Source of the DNA: Pseudodesulfovibrio hydrargyri
Lineage (GTDB): Bacteria; Desulfobacterota; Desulfovibrionia; Desulfovibrionales; Desulfovibrionaceae
DNA: 64,000 bases
Assembly: GCF_001874525.1 (NCBI RefSeq)
Contig: NZ_LKAQ01000001.1
Location: 620,001 to 684,000, forward strand
Direction: 5' to 3'
Numbering within the stretch: position 1 is the first letter of the stretch; every line of letters starts with the position of its first letter. Below the pieces are notes generated by a model. That model saw only the letters and a list, made by a program, of their open reading frames with translations. It was not told the DNA's origin and did not search any database. Position numbers and translations under genes: made by a program. This document shows, piece after piece, positions 15,013-20,073 of this stretch.

Positions 15013-16437
15013 ATGGAGACATACCGTTACCGGAACGTGGAGAAGAACGTCATGTCCATGATCGACGCGGGCGCGCTCGGGCTGGGCGACAAGCTTCCCT
15101 CCCTGCGCTCCCTGAGCGCCAAGCTCGGGGTGTCCGTTTCCACGGTCAACCAGGCGTACCTGGAACTCGAACGCAAGGGTGTCATCGAAGCCCGGCCCCG
15201 ATCCGGATTCTTCGTGCGCCGCGAATCCAAGCGGCTGCCGCGCACCGAGACCGCGCCCGCGCCCCTGGCCCAGCCCAGGCCGGTGACCCGCATAGGGTTG
15301 ATACAGAGCGTGCTCGAATCCGTGGGCGCGGCGGACCGCGTGGCGCTGGACGTCATAGCGCCCGGCCCCCAGCGCATGCCCCTGCGCGAGCTCGGACGGA
15401 TAACGGCGGCCATGGTCCGGGCCGAGCCCGAGCGGGCCATGGGTTACGCGCCCATCCCCGGCGACCAAAAGCTCATTCACCAGATCGCCTACCGTTCCAT
15501 GGAGTTCGGCATCCCGGCCGACCCCGACGACCCGCTGATCACCGCCGGATGCCTGGAGGCCCTGTACATCTCCCTGCGCTCCACCTGCCGCATGGGCGAC
15601 ACCGTGCTCATCCAGTCGCCCACCTATTACTGCTTCCTGCAACTGCTCGAGACCCTGGGGCTGCGCGCCGTGGAGGTGCCGTCCGACCCGGACCACGGGG
15701 TCGCGCCCGAGGAGTTGGCCCGGGCGCTCAAGACCTTCGACATCGCGGCCTGCGTGTTCGCGCCCAACTTCAACAACCCGGATTCCAGCCTGACCCCGGA
15801 CGAGGCCAAGGAGGAGATCGTGGCCATGCTGGCCAGACGCGACATCCCCCTGGTGGAGGACGACGTGTACACGGACCTGCACTTCGGCCCCAAGCGGCCG
15901 GGGACTTACAAGCAGTTCGACCAAAAGGGGCTGGTCCTGCTCTGCTCCTCCTTTTCCAAGACCATAGCGCCGGGCTTCCGAGTGGGCTGGATGCTGCCCG
16001 GCCGGTACCGCCAGAAGGCGCTTGAGATCAAGGCCACCACCAACGTGTCCAGCTCCTCCCCGGCCCAGATGGCCATCGCCGAATACCTGCGCCAGGGCCG
16101 CATGGAGCGCCACCTCAAGAAGCTGCGCACCGACCTGGAGCGGCAGATGGACACCATGCAGCTCCACCTGGGCCGCCATTTCCCGGCCGGGACCCGGGTG
16201 ACCCACCCGGTGGGCGGCGCGGTCCTCTGGCTGGAGCTGCCCAAGTCCGTGGACTCGGTGGAGCTGTTCTTCCAGGCCCGGGCCGAGGGCGTGGGCATAG
16301 CGCCCGGAGCCATCTTCTCCACCCAGGACAAGTTTTCCAACTATATCCGTCTGAGCTGCGGCTACCCGTGGACCGATGATCTGGAACGGGGCGTGCGCAC
16401 CCTGGGCAGGCTGGCCGGGTCCATGTGCCGCCCCTGA
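15013..16437 (+). CDS. MocR-family regulator (GntR helix-turn-helix fused to aminotransferase fold)
   Basis: 474 residues from ATG 15013. Residues 1-75 form a GntR winged helix (LPSLRSLSAKLGVSVSTVNQ, then YLELERKGVIEARPRSGFFV); a linker leads to a fold-type I aminotransferase-like domain (about 110-470). The PLP-binding lysine is in LLCSSFSKTIAPGFRVGW, preceded by FAPNFNNPDSS and EDDVYTDLHFG. MocR proteins use bound PLP, or its adduct with an amino acid, as an effector. It faces azlC-azlD-racemase and probably controls them according to amino acid levels. The half-sites at 14922-14974 are candidate binding sites. Confidence 0.9.
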   Translation: METYRYRNVEKNVMSMIDAGALGLGDKLPSLRSLSAKLGVSVSTVNQAYLELERKGVIEARPRSGFFVRRESKRLPRTETAPAPLAQPRPVTRIGLIQSVLESVGAADRVALDVIAPGPQRMPLRELGRITAAMVRAEPERAMGYAPIPGDQKLIHQIAYRSMEFGIPADPDDPLITAGCLEALYISLRSTCRMGDTVLIQSPTYYCFLQLLETLGLRAVEVPSDPDHGVAPEELARALKTFDIAACVFAPNFNNPDSSLTPDEAKEEIVAMLARRDIPLVEDDVYTDLHFGPKRPGTYKQFDQKGLVLLCSSFSKTIAPGFRVGWMLPGRYRQKALEIKATTNVSSSSPAQMAIAEYLRQGRMERHLKKLRTDLERQMDTMQLHLGRHFPAGTRVTHPVGGAVLWLELPKSVDSVELFFQARAEGVGIAPGAIFSTQDKFSNYIRLSCGYPWTDDLERGVRTLGRLAGSMCRP

Positions 16438-16518: not shown

Positions 16519-17442
16519 ATGCCCCCAATCGATCCCAAGCAGAAAACCTACGGCTTTGCCGCCGCCCTGGCCGCCTTCTTCGGCTGGGGACTCCTTCCTG
16601 TCTACTGGAAGGCCCTGATCACCGTGAATCCCTTCGAGATCCTCTGCCACAGGGTGGTCTGGTCCCTGATCTTCATCGCGATCATCCTGACCCTGCGCCG
16701 GGGATGGCGCGAGACCCTCGTGCCGCTCAGATCCAGGCGCGACCTGCTCATCCTGACCGCCAGTTCGCTGATGATCGGGTTCAACTGGCTGCTGTACATC
16801 TGGGCCGTGAACAACGACCACGTCCTGGACACCAGCCTGGGCTACTACATCAATCCCCTGGTCAACGTCCTGCTCGGCTTCGTCTTCCTCCGCGAACGGC
16901 TGCGTCCGCTCCAGATGATCGCCATCGGCCTGGCCGCCCTGGGAGTGGTCAACTCCGTGGTCGCCCAGGGCCAGCTTCCCTGGATATCCCTGGCCCTGGC
17001 GATCAGCTTCGGCCTGTACGGGCTGTTGCGCAAAATCGCCTCGGTGGAGTCCCTGCCCGGCCTGTTCCTCGAAACAATGGTCCTGGGCCCCTTTGCCCTG
17101 GGCTACATCCTCTGGCTCCAGGCCCACGGGGCGTCCGCCCTGTTCCACCAGGGGCTCGACGTGGACCTGCTGCTCGTGGGCGCGGGCGTGGCCACGGCCT
17201 CGCCGCTCATCGGCTTTGCCTACGGCGCCCGGCGGCTGCAGCTGACCACCCTGGGCCTGCTCCAGTACCTGGCCCCGTCCATCGCCTTCCTGCTCGGCGT
17301 GTTCGTCTACCGGGAGCCATTCAACGCCAGCCACCTGCTGACCTTTGCCCTGATCTGGTCCGGCCTGGCCGTGTACACCGCGGAATCGGTCATGACCATG
17401 CGCGCCCAGCGCCGCCTGGCCGGGGCCAGACCCGCGGCCTGA
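16519..17442 (+). CDS. rarD: RarD-type EamA/DMT family transporter
   Basis: 307 residues from ATG 16519, preceded by GGAGAGAGGA. It has ten predicted membrane segments in two EamA repeats. The N-terminal GFAAALAAFFGWGLLPVYWK and the HRVVWSL and NWLLYIWAVNNDHVLD motifs are diagnostic of RarD. The substrate of RarD is not established; relatives export amino acids or metabolites. It lies 76 bases upstream of arsR-hgcAB on the same strand, but a good promoter between them suggests separate transcription. Confidence 0.9.
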   Translation: MPPIDPKQKTYGFAAALAAFFGWGLLPVYWKALITVNPFEILCHRVVWSLIFIAIILTLRRGWRETLVPLRSRRDLLILTASSLMIGFNWLLYIWAVNNDHVLDTSLGYYINPLVNVLLGFVFLRERLRPLQMIAIGLAALGVVNSVVAQGQLPWISLALAISFGLYGLLRKIASVESLPGLFLETMVLGPFALGYILWLQAHGASALFHQGLDVDLLLVGAGVATASPLIGFAYGARRLQLTTLGLLQYLAPSIAFLLGVFVYREPFNASHLLTFALIWSGLAVYTAESVMTMRAQRRLAGARPAA

Positions 17443-17517: not shown

Positions 17518-17835
17518 ATGTTTTTTACTCCTCCCCTGCACAGTGAAGACGAAACATTCCTGGCCGAGGTCTGCAAGGGGCTGGCCCACCCGGCCCGCAT
17601 ACGCATCCTCAGGCAGTTGATGACCGAGCACAGCTGTACCTGCGGGCAGCTCGTGGGCGAGTTGCCCCTGGCCCAATCCACGGTCAGTCAGCACCTCAAG
17701 GTCCTCCGCGACGCCGGCCTGGTGCGCGGCGAGGTGGAAGGGCCCCGGACCTGCTACTGCGTGAACCGGAAAACCATGGACCGGTTCGGGCCGCTCATCC
17801 GCGCGCTCCTGTCGATAACGCCGGAGGCCTCATGA
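17518..17835 (+). CDS. ArsR-family transcriptional regulator of the hgcAB operon
   Basis: 105 residues from ATG 17518 with GGAGG at ideal spacing. A winged helix-turn-helix spans about 15-85: ICK-like start LAEVCKGLAHPARIRILR, recognition helix LAQSTVSQHLKVLRDAGLV. A Cys pair in HSCTCGQLV sits where ArsR carries its ELCVCDL metal(loid)-binding motif, and another Cys is in TCYCVNRK, so As(III) or another thiophilic metal could be the inducer. The stop overlaps the ATG at 17832 (ATGA), coupling it to hgcA. An arsR-like gene upstream of hgcAB, cotranscribed with it, has been reported for Desulfovibrio (from memory). Confidence 0.9.
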   Translation: MFFTPPLHSEDETFLAEVCKGLAHPARIRILRQLMTEHSCTCGQLVGELPLAQSTVSQHLKVLRDAGLVRGEVEGPRTCYCVNRKTMDRFGPLIRALLSITPEAS

Positions 17836-19037
17836 ATCCGTTAACGCCCCGCCCCGAGGAAAAAGACCTCAAGCCTCTGGAGCTGATGGCCCCGTCCCAG
17901 GCCCGCGCGGCAGCCCTCTGTCCCCCCGTCTCGCCTGAGGACGACGCGCCCTGTTGAGGCCCCAGGCCCGACCCCCGTGCCGGGGTCTTCGAAAAACCGG
18001 GATACGCCATAAAGCCGTTCGTGGACGGATTCGTGGACACGCCCGTCGGGCCGGTGCCGCGCGTGCGTACCCGCATGCTTCCGTCCGACCGGCTGGGCAC
18101 GGCCCTGGCCCGGCTTGGGGCGACCCGCAGCGATTACAAGGTCGTGCCCGGCCTGTACTGCGTGGGCGATCCCACCCCGGATTCCCCGGTCCTGGTCACG
18201 GCCAACTACAAGCTGACCTTCGACGCGGTGCGCCGCGAGTTGGCGGGCATCGACGCCTGGCTGCTGGTGGCGGACACGCGCGGCATCAACGTGTGGTGCG
18301 CGGCGGGCAAGGGACTGTTCGCCACCGACGAGATCGTCTACAGCGTGAACCGCTCCCGACTCCACCAGGTGGCGGCACACCGCGACCTCATCCTGCCCCA
18401 GCTCGGGGCCACGGGCGTGGCCGGACGCGAGGTCAGAAAGGCGTGCGGCTTCAAAGTGATCTGGGGCCCTGTGCGGGCCGAAGACCTGCCCGAATTCCTG
18501 GCCAACGGCAACCAGGCGGACCGGGAAATGCGCATGGTCACCTTCCCCTTGAAGGAACGGGCCGTGCTCATCCCGGTGGAGATATTCCTGCTCTGGAAGT
18601 CCCTGGCCTGGGCCCTGCCCGCGCTCTTCCTGCTCTCGGCCATCGGCCCGGACGTCTTCTCGCTCTCCGCGCTGTGGCACCGGGGGCTCAATGCCCTGCT
18701 GGCCACCCTGTTCGGCGTGCTGGCGGGCTGCGCGGCGGTGCCCCTGCTCCTCGACCGGCTGCCGTGGCGCTCCTTCTGGCCCAAGGGTGCGCTCACCGGC
18801 GCCGTGGCCGGACTTGCGGCCGCGCTGCTGCTGCCGCTGAACGGATTGCTCGAACCCCTGGCCGTCCTGTTGTGGACCACGGCCGTGTCGTCCTATCTGG
18901 CCATGAACTTCACCGGCTCCACGCCGTACACCTCGCCCTCGGGCGTGGAAAAGGAAATGCGCCGGGGCATCCCGCTCCAGGCGCTGGCCGGGCTCGCGGC
19001 CCTGGCTCTGTGGCTGGCGGCGCCGTTTCTCAAATAA
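17832..19037 (+). CDS. hgcA: HgcA, corrinoid methyltransferase for mercury methylation, with in-frame TGA
   Basis: HgcA carries a methyl-corrinoid and transfers the methyl group to Hg(II), giving methylmercury. Its signature cap-helix motif NVWCAAGKG is present; the cobalt-ligand Cys is Cys93 counted from GTG 18021, followed by C-terminal membrane helices (about residues 165-335 in that numbering). The conventional gene is 18021-19037 (338 residues), but that GTG has no ribosome site. The frame is open upstream without another start codon to TGA 17955-17957, and beyond it to ATG 17832, which has GGAGG (17823-17827) and overlaps the arsR stop. I annotate the full frame: 41 residues ending in DDAPC, the TGA, 21 residues including EKPGYAIKPF, then the classical protein. 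Selenocysteine at TGA is my inference; otherwise the 41-codon frame is a leader peptide. hgcB follows after 11 bases. Confidence 0.9.
17955..17957 (+). other. In-frame TGA in hgcA, candidate selenocysteine codon
   Basis: This TGA is the only stop between ATG 17832 and the hgcA stop at 19035-19037, and it is in the same frame. It follows a Cys codon (TGT) and precedes Gly (GGC), giving Cys-Sec-Gly if recoded. As I remember HgcA family sequences, a Cys-Cys-Gly-like site occurs at this N-terminal position, so Sec would replace Cys. Confidence 0.5.
17970..17987 (+). promoter_or_regulatory. Candidate bacterial SECIS hairpin
   Basis: GACCCC (17970-17975) pairs perfectly with GGGGTC (17982-17987), leaving a six-base loop CGTGCC with G in its second position. 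The loop starts 18 bases after the TGA. Bacterial SECIS elements lie directly downstream of the UGA in coding sequence, with the apical loop roughly 16-37 bases away and a G among the first loop bases. Short GC hairpins also arise by chance in this GC-rich DNA. Confidence 0.4.
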
Positions 19038-19048
19038 AGGAGGCCGTG

Positions 19049-19336
19049 ATGAAGAATTTCCGTTATCTGGACGGCGTGGCCACCCTGGCGCTCGATACGG
19101 ACGCCTGCGTCGGCTGCGGCTCGTGCGTGGAGGTCTGCCCGCACCGCATCCTCGAGATGCGCGGGAAAAAGGCGGCCATCCTCGACCCGGATGCCTGCAT
19201 GGAGTGCGGGGCCTGCGCCACCAACTGCCCGGTTCGGGCGGTCACGGTCACGCCCGGCGTGGGCTGCGCCTCCTACCTCATCTCGGTCTGGCTGCACAAG
19301 CTTACCGGCCGCAAGGTCGATTCCGCCTGCTGCTAG
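19049..19336 (+). CDS. hgcB: HgcB, 2[4Fe-4S] ferredoxin of mercury methylation
   Basis: 95 residues from ATG 19049 with AAAGGAGG at 19037-19044. Two ferredoxin motifs, CVGCGSCVEVC and CMECGACATNC, bind two 4Fe-4S clusters. Cys73 (VGCASY) and the vicinal C-terminal pair Cys94-Cys95 (DSACC) are the HgcB-specific residues implicated in Hg(II) binding and transfer. HgcB is thought to reduce the HgcA corrinoid to Co(I) and deliver mercury. It is the third gene of arsR-hgcA-hgcB. Its last four bases, CTAG, are shared with the stop of the convergent isochorismatase-like gene. Confidence 0.97.
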   Translation: MKNFRYLDGVATLALDTDACVGCGSCVEVCPHRILEMRGKKAAILDPDACMECGACATNCPVRAVTVTPGVGCASYLISVWLHKLTGRKVDSACC

Positions 19337-19887
19337 AGGCCGAGGAACGACGGCATCTCGTCCACGGTTATGACCGGCGCGTAGGCGGCCTGAAGCGCCG
19401 CGAGGAACGCGCCGTGCACCTGGGCCGCAGGGACGATCCGGCCGTCGAACTCCAGGTCGCGGGTGGCCGAGGCGTCGGACAGGACCGCGCATTCGAAGCC
19501 GAGGTCCACGGCCGCGCGCACCCCGGCGTCCAGGCACATATGGGTCATCATCCCGGCCACGGCCAGGCGGGTCGCCCCCGCCTCGCGCAGCCGTTCGAGC
19601 AGGTCCGTCTCGCGGAAACTGTTGGGGTAGTGCTTGGTGACCACCGGCTCGCCGTCAACGGGCGTGACCGCGTCGTGGATGGCCGCGCCCGCAGTGCCGG
19701 GCAAAAAGAACGCCGCCCCGGCCTGAAGCGCCTCGTGGCGTACGTGGACGACCGGCAGGCCGCGCTCCCTGAACAGCTTGAGGGCCCGTGCCGCGCGGGC
19801 GGCGGCGGACTCGGAACCGACGAGTTCCATGCGCCCGCCCGGGAAATAGTCGTTTTGCAGATCGATGAGCATCAGGGCCGTTTTCAT
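19333..19887 (-). CDS. Isochorismatase-family cysteine hydrolase
   Basis: 184 residues from ATG 19887; the open frame reaches 19998 but MKTALMLIDLQNDYF is the canonical beginning. The catalytic triad is visible: Asp in LIDLQNDYF, Lys in VVTKHYPNSF and nucleophile Cys in VAGMMTHMCLDAG. The family includes nicotinamidases, isochorismatases and ureidoacrylate hydrolases. The MTHMC.D signature is that of general cysteine hydrolases (YcaC/PncA-like), and the substrate is unclear. It is convergent with hgcB, sharing the CTAG stop overlap, and monocistronic. Confidence 0.88.
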   Translation of the reverse strand: MKTALMLIDLQNDYFPGGRMELVGSESAAARAARALKLFRERGLPVVHVRHEALQAGAAFFLPGTAGAAIHDAVTPVDGEPVVTKHYPNSFRETDLLERLREAGATRLAVAGMMTHMCLDAGVRAAVDLGFECAVLSDASATRDLEFDGRIVPAAQVHGAFLAALQAAYAPVITVDEMPSFLGL

Positions 19888-20073
19888 GGGCACCTCCGTT
19901 TTGACGCCACCATACCCGTTCCCTCCGGGTGGGGTCCAATCGGTTTCCCCGATACGCCCATCAATGTATCCAATATTCATCATCTGAAGGCTTGCCACAA
20001 AAACTCCACTGGGCTATGTATTGGATAATCAAACTATTAACCGGTGCGAAGAGCGCCGCTCACAGGCTTGACG

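What the first reader, a model, noticed from the sequence alone, without database searches (positions are those of the whole stretch)
17832..18020. hgcA frame continues upstream through one TGA: possible selenocysteine form of HgcA
The usual GTG start of hgcA (18021) has no Shine-Dalgarno sequence. The same frame upstream has no ATG, GTG or TTG up to TGA 17955-17957. Past the TGA it is open to ATG 17832, which has GGAGG and overlaps the arsR stop (ATGA). The 21 residues between TGA and GTG (ending in EKPGYAIKPF) match the N-terminal pattern I remember for HgcA proteins, so the annotated start probably truncates the protein. If TGA is read as Sec, HgcA gains a Cys-Sec-Gly site, a strong candidate ligand for Hg(II), complementing the Cys-Cys tail of HgcB. 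I know of no description of this; a literature check is needed.
Basis: partly seen in the sequence, partly recalled or inferred. Interest (0 to 1): 0.95.

Follow-up and report, generated by a model that had tools for sequence, protein, structure and literature searches.

The report
Selenocysteine-tailed HgcA, the mercury-methylation protein
In this hgcAB-carrying bacterium the gene hgcA reads upstream through a UGA codon at the exact place where relatives have a cysteine, so HgcA is predicted to carry selenocysteine in a flexible tail that would likely bind mercury; selenocysteine HgcA was already predicted in print in 2023, and this gene adds a well-supported case.

Summary
The hgcA frame is open from ATG 17832 (GGAGG, ATGA overlap with arsR) through one TGA (17955-17957) to TAA 19037. 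The Sec reading is strongly supported. The genome has selA, selB, tRNA-Sec and a TGA-containing selD. TGA aligns with the second Cys of a CCG motif (53 of 53 aligned Cys relatives that reach it). The codon at GTG 18021 is GTG in 41 of 97 TGA homologues; the closest relative has GTC. In the order sample, 55 of 74 genomes examined carry TGA beside Cys.

It is not new as a kind. A 2026 review lists HgcA (NF040863, motif CU) as a selenoprotein, citing Haft & Gwadz 2023, and a 2024 PNAS paper repeats it. What I add: the hairpin evidence, the non-conserved GTG start, the distribution, alternative Sec sites, and the inference that the P. mercurii ND132 protein used in biochemistry (C93 numbering, 37 kDa) lacks this tail. 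A role in Hg(II) binding is plausible but untested.

The parts
17518..17835 (+). arsR/smtB-type regulator gene; its stop TGA overlaps the hgcA ATG
   Evidence: NF033788 74.5 bits, PF01022
17823..17827 (+). GGAGG Shine-Dalgarno-like sequence, 4 nt before ATG 17832
17832..19037 (+). full hgcA coding sequence with one in-frame TGA read as Sec (401 residues plus stop)
   Evidence: homologues; NF040863 437.5 bits, cut-off 275
17832..17954 (+). N-terminal extension, 41 codons up to Cys41
   Evidence: dN < dS in 6 of 6 pairs of the four closest genes; low-confidence, probably disordered in the model
17955..17957 (+). TGA predicted to be read as selenocysteine 42 (Cys41-Sec42-Gly43)
   Evidence: aligned with Cys in 53 of 53 relatives that reach it; TGA beside Cys in 55 of 74 order genomes examined
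17970..17987 (+). SECIS-like hairpin: 6-bp stem GACCCC/GGGGTC, loop CGTGCC at 17976-17981, loop begins 18 nt after the TGA, -10.2 kcal/mol
   Evidence: consensus as given in PMC13188914
18021..18023 (+). GTG proposed as start; more likely internal Val64
   Evidence: GTG in 41 of 97 TGA-CU homologues, GTC in the closest one; first residue of a predicted beta strand 64-70
19049..19336 (+). hgcB, 95 aa, Cys form (GVGC73, C-terminal Cys94-Cys95)
   Evidence: NF040864 125 bits, cut-off 99

Best explanation
hgcA here is an arsR-hgcA-hgcB cluster gene whose in-frame UGA (17955-17957) is predicted to be read as selenocysteine, giving an HgcA with a Cys41-Sec42 pair in a likely flexible N-terminal tail that would bind Hg(II) and pass it towards the corrinoid. 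Proposed working: ribosomes start at ATG 17832, coupled to the end of arsR. At UGA 17955 the hairpin 17970-17987 recruits SelB with Sec-tRNA (selC on contig C4) and Sec is inserted. The product is about 43 kDa: tail 1-63, then the corrinoid domain with the cap-helix Cys156 (Cys93 in published numbering), then the membrane helices. The tail pair would work like the Cys94-Cys95 tail of HgcB, as a mobile thiolate/selenolate pair that hands Hg(II) (or takes CH3Hg+) near the Co-CH3 centre. Shown from sequence: frame, TGA/Cys pairing, hairpin, machinery, non-conserved GTG. Inferred: actual Sec insertion in the cell, and the start at ATG. Speculative: the Hg(II) relay. My estimates: Sec encoding 0.95; Hg(II)/CH3Hg+ handling by the pair 0.45.
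For: Frame and TGA. Machinery in the same genome: selA 608.6 bits, selB 386.8 bits, tRNA-Sec 79.6 bits with anticodon tca, selD 329.2 bits with one TGA; two of four formate dehydrogenase alpha genes over the cut-off contain one TGA. TGA/Cys pairing. SECIS-like hairpin at 106 of 115 TGA sites against 30 of 87 Cys sites, 36.9% in mononucleotide shuffles; stability against synonymous recoding, mean z -1.16 (TGA, n=115) against 0.07 (Cys, n=86); the six stem pairs form in 81% of cells of 65 distinct TGA sequences (shuffles mean 70.9%, maximum 74.1%) against 34.5% in 42 Cys sequences. GTG not conserved, 41 of 97; 32 of 97 have no start codon between TGA and 8 codons into the core. dN < dS upstream of TGA in 6 of 6 pairs. 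For the role: CC/CU pairs sit at different tail positions, the tail is of low model confidence, as disorder would give, and the HgcB Cys pair is needed for full methylation (double mutant 95% down, PMC7305189, passage).
Against: The window's own hairpin is no more stable than synonymous recodings of the same peptide (z -0.17); the hairpin case rests on homologues. In one search only 29 of 67 equally spaced TGA sites form all six pairs in this register, and the count of pairs with changes on both sides does not discriminate (5 of 6 in TGA, 6 of 6 in the Cys control). The free 44-nt RNA folds best into a competing structure (-20.2 kcal/mol). 2 of 55 TGA genomes in the order sample have no selA match (G013, G293; 94% and 84% complete), and G069 (77% complete, outside the 74) has a TGA and no selA match either. 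10 selA-positive genomes of the order have only Cys pairs, so Sec is not required. E. coli lysates with ND132 HgcAB (37 kDa HgcA, so apparently without the tail) make MeHg (PMC11588087), so the tail is not strictly needed for activity. No protein-level evidence exists here.
Confidence: 0.85

Rival explanations
1. The TGA is an ordinary stop and HgcA starts at GTG 18021; the upstream frame is a leader remnant.
For: Five deposited Pseudodesulfovibrio proteins start at or within a few residues of there. Published C93 numbering and a 37 kDa recombinant HgcA fit this start.
Against: No Shine-Dalgarno before GTG. The codon is GTG in 41 of 97 TGA-CU homologues; the closest relative L022 has GTC and no start codon in reach. 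The start would lie on the first residue of a predicted strand. The tail is protein-conserved on both sides of the TGA.
Confidence: 0.03
2. Both forms are made: full-length Sec-HgcA plus a shorter form from an internal start, the ratio set by selenium supply.
For: 41 of 97 TGA homologues keep GTG at Val64 and some have ATG 4 codons earlier. Sec insertion is generally inefficient (recalled). Recombinant HgcA of tail-less size has some activity in lysate (PMC11588087).
Against: Only 2 of the 41 GTG sites have an SD-like sequence, and 32 of 97 loci have no candidate start.
Confidence: 0.1
3. The UGA is read as Sec, but the Cys-Sec pair serves a redox or structural role (reductant of Co or of a disulfide, or a metal other than Hg) rather than Hg relay.
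For: Sec serves redox chemistry in many known selenoproteins (PMC13188914, passages). [quoted passage not shown] An arsR gene lies next to it.
Against: Adjacent CC/CU pairs, not CxxC, in a tail of low model confidence, as in HgcB; this fits metal binding better. No direct test.
Confidence: 0.35
4. The TGA is a sequencing or assembly error, or a fresh nonsense mutation.
For: None found.
Against: TGA beside Cys in 55 of 74 order genomes examined and in 25 of the 80 named contigs kept.
Confidence: 0.005

Closest known systems
Selenoprotein HgcA, NCBIfam NF040863, motif CU (Haft & Gwadz 2023, as listed in PMC13188914)
   Same: HgcA equivalog above cut-off; Cys-Sec pair; in-frame UGA
   Different: No difference found, but the original paper is not held, so whether it treats this species, the exact site or the hairpin is unknown to me. 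The NF040863 match begins at residue 75, downstream of the Sec.
Cys-form HgcA with N-terminal CCG motif
   Same: Same core and tail, CCGPPxGP...EKPGY in place of CUGPRPDP...EKPGY
   Different: Cys instead of Sec; SECIS-like hairpins only at about the shuffle rate (30 of 87)
HgcB C-terminal Cys94-Cys95 tail
   Same: Adjacent chalcogen pair on a flexible tail in the same complex (PMC7305189, passages)
   Different: Different protein and terminus; present here in the Cys form (19328-19333)
Selenoprotein HgcB, NF040864, motif GVGU
   Same: Same complex, also a UGA form (PMC13188914)
   Different: HgcB in this window is GVGC, not Sec

Membership tests
HgcA (mercury-methylation corrinoid protein) | Match to NF040863 above its curated cut-off | tested here: met
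   437.5 bits against 275
HgcA (mercury-methylation corrinoid protein) | Cap-helix motif with the Cys numbered 93 (motif consensus recalled; Cys93 in PMC7305189) | tested here: met
   NVWCAAGK; Cys156 = Cys93 counted from GTG; Cys in 61 of 61 aligned
HgcA (mercury-methylation corrinoid protein) | hgcB directly downstream | tested here: met
   NF040864 125 bits, cut-off 99
HgcA (mercury-methylation corrinoid protein) | Methylates Hg(II) | not testable with these tools
   needs culture assay
Bacterial selenoprotein | In-frame UGA with homologues carrying Cys at that codon | tested here: met
   53 of 53 aligned relatives that reach it have Cys (mostly chosen for full length); more
Bacterial selenoprotein | selA, selB, selC, selD in the genome | tested here: met
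Bacterial selenoprotein | bSECIS: G in first two loop bases, loop 3-9 nt, stem 4-16 bp, spacing 16-37 nt, MFE at most -7.5 (PMC13188914) | tested here: met
   loop CGUGCC, 6 bp, spacing 18 nt, -10.2 kcal/mol for the hairpin alone; recurs in homologues; a competing fold exists
Bacterial selenoprotein | Selenium present in the protein | not testable with these tools
   75Se labelling or mass spectrometry

The most novel reading that the evidence does not exclude
The native HgcA of the model methylator P. mercurii ND132 and of most hgcA carriers of this order is a selenoprotein with a Cys-Sec mercury-handling tail, whereas the ND132 HgcA used in biochemistry so far is cut off behind the Sec; selenium supply would then gate the tail and possibly methylmercury formation in these bacteria.
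Probability: 0.35. Interest if true: 0.8.

Novelty: new member of a known kind. Interest (0 to 1): 0.45.

Why it matters
Methylmercury formation depends on HgcAB, and how Hg(II) reaches the methyl-corrinoid is open (PMC11588087, passage). A conserved Cys-Sec or Cys-Cys pair in front of the corrinoid domain is a testable candidate ligand that annotation removes from Sec-type sequences: the deposited P. indicus, P. sediminis, P. cashew and strain S3 proteins all begin behind the TGA. It also suggests a selenium-mercury link inside the methylating enzyme itself. The Sec prediction is published; I saw no functional test of it in the passages I read, but the primary paper could not be read.

Tried and rejected
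Sequencing error or pseudogene: rejected, since the TGA recurs. GTG start: rejected. TGA as a genome-wide sense codon: rejected by inference, since arsR ends at TGA 17833-17835 and overlaps the very ATG of hgcA. Rfam scan of the window: 0 matches at gathering scores. Test 'TGA only where selA exists': little power, because 168 of the 180 genomes given to the selA search passed the cut-off. The three selA-negative genomes at least 98% complete (G577, G662, G572) show no TGA beside Cys in the tail printed (two of them were set aside as 'aligned late'). Solved structures of HgcA: none; only 4 CFeSP sequences matched. ND132 DNA: not found among the 36 genus genomes held, nor by exact match among the loci I had placed, so its TGA is inferred, not seen. 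PLoS Genet 2008 (PMC2398784), cited by the review for this family, holds none of the four terms I looked for. The second protein was given in the wrong frame; its result (0 families) is void and was replaced. Covariation by counting pairs with double-sided changes: rejected as uninformative (Cys control as high).

Limits of the counts. One search scored only 8000 candidates and listed 120; I aligned 61 chains (P0001 and 60 of the 120), chosen mostly for full length, so Sec forms (truncated in databases) are under-represented there. One search placed 154 of 155 loci (L175 had no hit); one search placed 109 of 109. One search dropped 12 of these 263 loci as exact duplicates and left 49 without a CC/CU/UC pair. 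The 115 TGA sites include L295, whose TGA looks like the ordinary stop of an upstream gene. The hairpin scan used a contiguous stem of 5 or more, loop 3-12, spacing 14-37 and G in the first two loop bases, slightly wider than the review's limits. From, 11 of 85 matching genomes were not examined (9 weak corrinoid-domain matches, 2 cut by contig ends). The wider set of 105 genomes is 104 of the 296 matching genomes (mostly the better-scoring ones) plus G298.

Full report
WHAT IS THERE. The window holds arsR (17518-17835), hgcA and hgcB (19049-19336) in a row. The frame of hgcA is open from ATG 17832 to TAA 19037 with one TGA at 17955-17957. ATG 17832 has GGAGG at 17823-17827 and overlaps the arsR stop as ATGA. 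GTG 18021 has no Shine-Dalgarno sequence. HgcA matches NF040863 (437.5 bits, cut-off 275) and HgcB matches NF040864 (125 bits, cut-off 99). HgcB is the ordinary Cys form. The genus is Pseudodesulfovibrio by inference: four genomes labelled 'same genus' encode, letter for letter after the first residue, the deposited proteins of P. indicus, P. sediminis, P. cashew and Pseudodesulfovibrio sp. S3. An arsR gene before hgcA, and its control of hgcAB in ND132, are already described (PMC10349881, passages).

SEC MACHINERY. The genome holds selA (608.6 bits), selB (386.8 bits), tRNA-Sec (79.6 bits; ARAGORN tRNA-SeC with anticodon tca) and selD (329.2 bits, itself with one TGA). Two of four formate dehydrogenase alpha genes over the cut-off also contain one TGA. 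Sec decoding is therefore expected to be active in this organism.

CYS/SEC PAIRING. In one search, 85 of 297 genomes of the order matched. I had the N-terminal DNA for 74 of the 85 and placed the frame using only the core from residue 63 on. 55 of 74 have TGA directly beside a Cys codon in the 60 codons before the core; 11 have CC pairs only; 3 have a TGA not beside Cys; 2 were cut by a contig end; 1 (G185) is a broken gene that aligned late; 2 have none of these. The motif reads CUGPxPDPRAGVFEKPGY in close relatives and CCGPPxGP...EKPGY in Cys relatives. In an alignment of 61 proteins, 54 reach the site, and all 53 relatives among them have Cys-Cys-Gly there. They were mostly picked for full length, so this shows what stands at the codon when it is not TGA, not how common Cys is. 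Wider, of 105 further genomes examined 39 have TGA beside Cys, 31 CC only, 10 TGA not beside Cys, 15 neither, 9 aligned too late and 1 was cut. Of the 80 named contigs kept, 25 have CU or UC, among them Pseudodesulfovibrio, Desulfoprunum and Desulfopila.

SECIS. After the TGA lies GACCCC-CGTGCC-GGGGTC (17970-17987): 6 bp, loop of 6 with G at position 2, 18 nt from the TGA, -10.2 kcal/mol. This meets the four constraints printed in PMC13188914 (passage). Among 115 distinct TGA sites 106 have a SECIS-like hairpin, against 30 of 87 Cys sites and 36.9% in mononucleotide shuffles; in 80 of the 106 the loop begins 18 or 19 nt after the TGA. Against synonymous recodings the TGA sites are more stable (mean z -1.16, n=115; Cys 0.07, n=86; Mann-Whitney p 7e-14; 31 of 115 against 5 of 86 rank in the lowest 5%). 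In 65 distinct TGA sequences of equal spacing the six stem pairs form in 81% of cells (shuffles mean 70.9%, maximum 74.1%; slid registers 33-65%); in 42 Cys sequences they form in 34.5%, no more than in shuffles (37.5%). Stems such as GTCCCC/GGGGAC, GCCCCC/GGGGGC, GATCCC/GGGATC and GTGTCC/GGACAC replace each other. Against: all six pairs form in this register in 29 of 67 sites, others using a shifted stem; counting pairs with double-sided changes does not discriminate (5 of 6, Cys control 6 of 6); sequences are related, so shuffles overstate significance; the window's own hairpin is not more stable than its recodings (z -0.17); and the whole 44-nt RNA prefers another fold. That fold needs bases 17958-17963 and disappears when the sequence is taken from 17964, as would be so with a ribosome paused at the UGA (inference).

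THE GTG START. At the position of GTG 18021, 97 TGA-CU homologues have GTG 41 times, GTC 34, GTA 10, GTT 9, ATC 2, ATA 1. Two of the 41 GTGs have an SD-like sequence. 32 of 97 have no ATG, GTG or TTG from the TGA to 8 codons into the core, among them the closest relative L022 (86% identical). The model places residue 64 on the first residue of a beta strand (64-70), with residues 1-46 and 49-58 below pLDDT 50. Upstream of the TGA dN is lower than dS in 6 of 6 pairs of the four closest genes (32-41 codons each), and synonymous change between TGA and GTG is lower than in the core in the same 6 pairs (dS 0.07-0.44 against 0.33-0.76), as a SECIS would impose. These segments are short.

WHAT IS KNOWN. 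PMC13188914 (2026 review; search listing, passages and one part of the reference list seen) lists 'Mercury methylation corrinoid protein HgcA, NF040863, CU' and 'HgcB, NF040864, GVGU' as selenoproteins, citing Haft & Gwadz 2023 (not held). PMC11588087 (2024; [quoted passage not shown] So the kind is known, and this gene is a further member. I saw no statement that ND132 HgcA is a Sec form in the listings or the passages read, but the primary paper could not be read.

THE ND132 POINT. The deposited P. mercurii protein (P0023, 338 aa, 36.7 kDa) starts at the residue equivalent to Val64, and its cap-helix Cys is number 93. Papers use C93, and a recombinant 'full-length' HgcA is given as 37 kDa (PMC11588087; C93 also in PMC7305189). 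Window HgcA counted from GTG also gives Cys93 and 36.4 kDa; read through the TGA it has 401 residues and 43.1 kDa. The P. indicus, P. sediminis, P. cashew and strain S3 proteins, whose DNA I matched, all lack the part up to and including the Sec. ND132 DNA itself was not available, so its TGA is inferred.

HOW IT MAY WORK. The tail has low model confidence, as a disordered segment would, and holds an adjacent Cys-Sec or Cys-Cys pair. In some lineages the Sec sits at another pair (CUPPK 38-52 codons before the core in L105, L119, L157, and in the upstream tails of L154, L161, L162), or the order is UC (6 of 115 sites, one of them, L295, probably an ordinary stop). Pairs that can move along a floppy tail fit a mobile metal ligand better than a fixed catalytic centre. 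HgcB has the same kind of tail, and loss of both its Cys cuts methylation by 95% (PMC7305189, passage). I therefore favour Hg(II) or CH3Hg+ hand-over, at about 0.45, with redox or other roles at about 0.35. Against: recombinant HgcAB of tail-less size is active in lysate (PMC11588087).

Noticed in passing
L105, L119, L154, L157, L161, L162 (N-terminal tails): A second type of Sec site: TGA in a CUPPK motif well upstream of the usual CCG position. L105, L119 and L157 fold into a strong hairpin after it; the genomes of L154, L157, L161 and L162 are selA-positive.
   Followed up: partly
L123, L241, L247, L253, L262 (tails): TGA precedes Cys (UC) instead of following it, at tails before the HgcA core (for L123, for the rest). 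The sixth UC site, L295, looks like an ordinary upstream stop.
   Followed up: partly
L047, L268, L273, L278 (tails): In-frame TGA in the tail without a neighbouring Cys; 13 of 179 genomes examined fall in this class.
   Followed up: no
G013 (L166), G293 (L050), G069: TGA-type hgcA in genomes without a selA match (94%, 84% and 77% complete): assembly gaps or a lost machinery.
   Followed up: no
L174 (genome G185): hgcA found only in pieces, one with a TAG inside: looks like a decayed hgcA.
   Followed up: no
L018; L308 and L310 (contigs C4 and C5 of the window's genome): selD and two formate dehydrogenase alpha genes carry one in-frame TGA each: likely further selenoproteins of this organism.
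   Followed up: partly
NF040863 model: NCBI's HgcA model matches from residue 75 on, so the match does not include the Cys-Sec site.
   Followed up: no
19333-19998 (-), 16519-17442 (+), 15013-16437 (+): ORFs of 221, 307 and 474 aa flank the cluster; from sequence alone they look like an isochorismatase-type hydrolase, an EamA-type transporter and a MocR-type regulator (recalled patterns, no family search).
   Followed up: no
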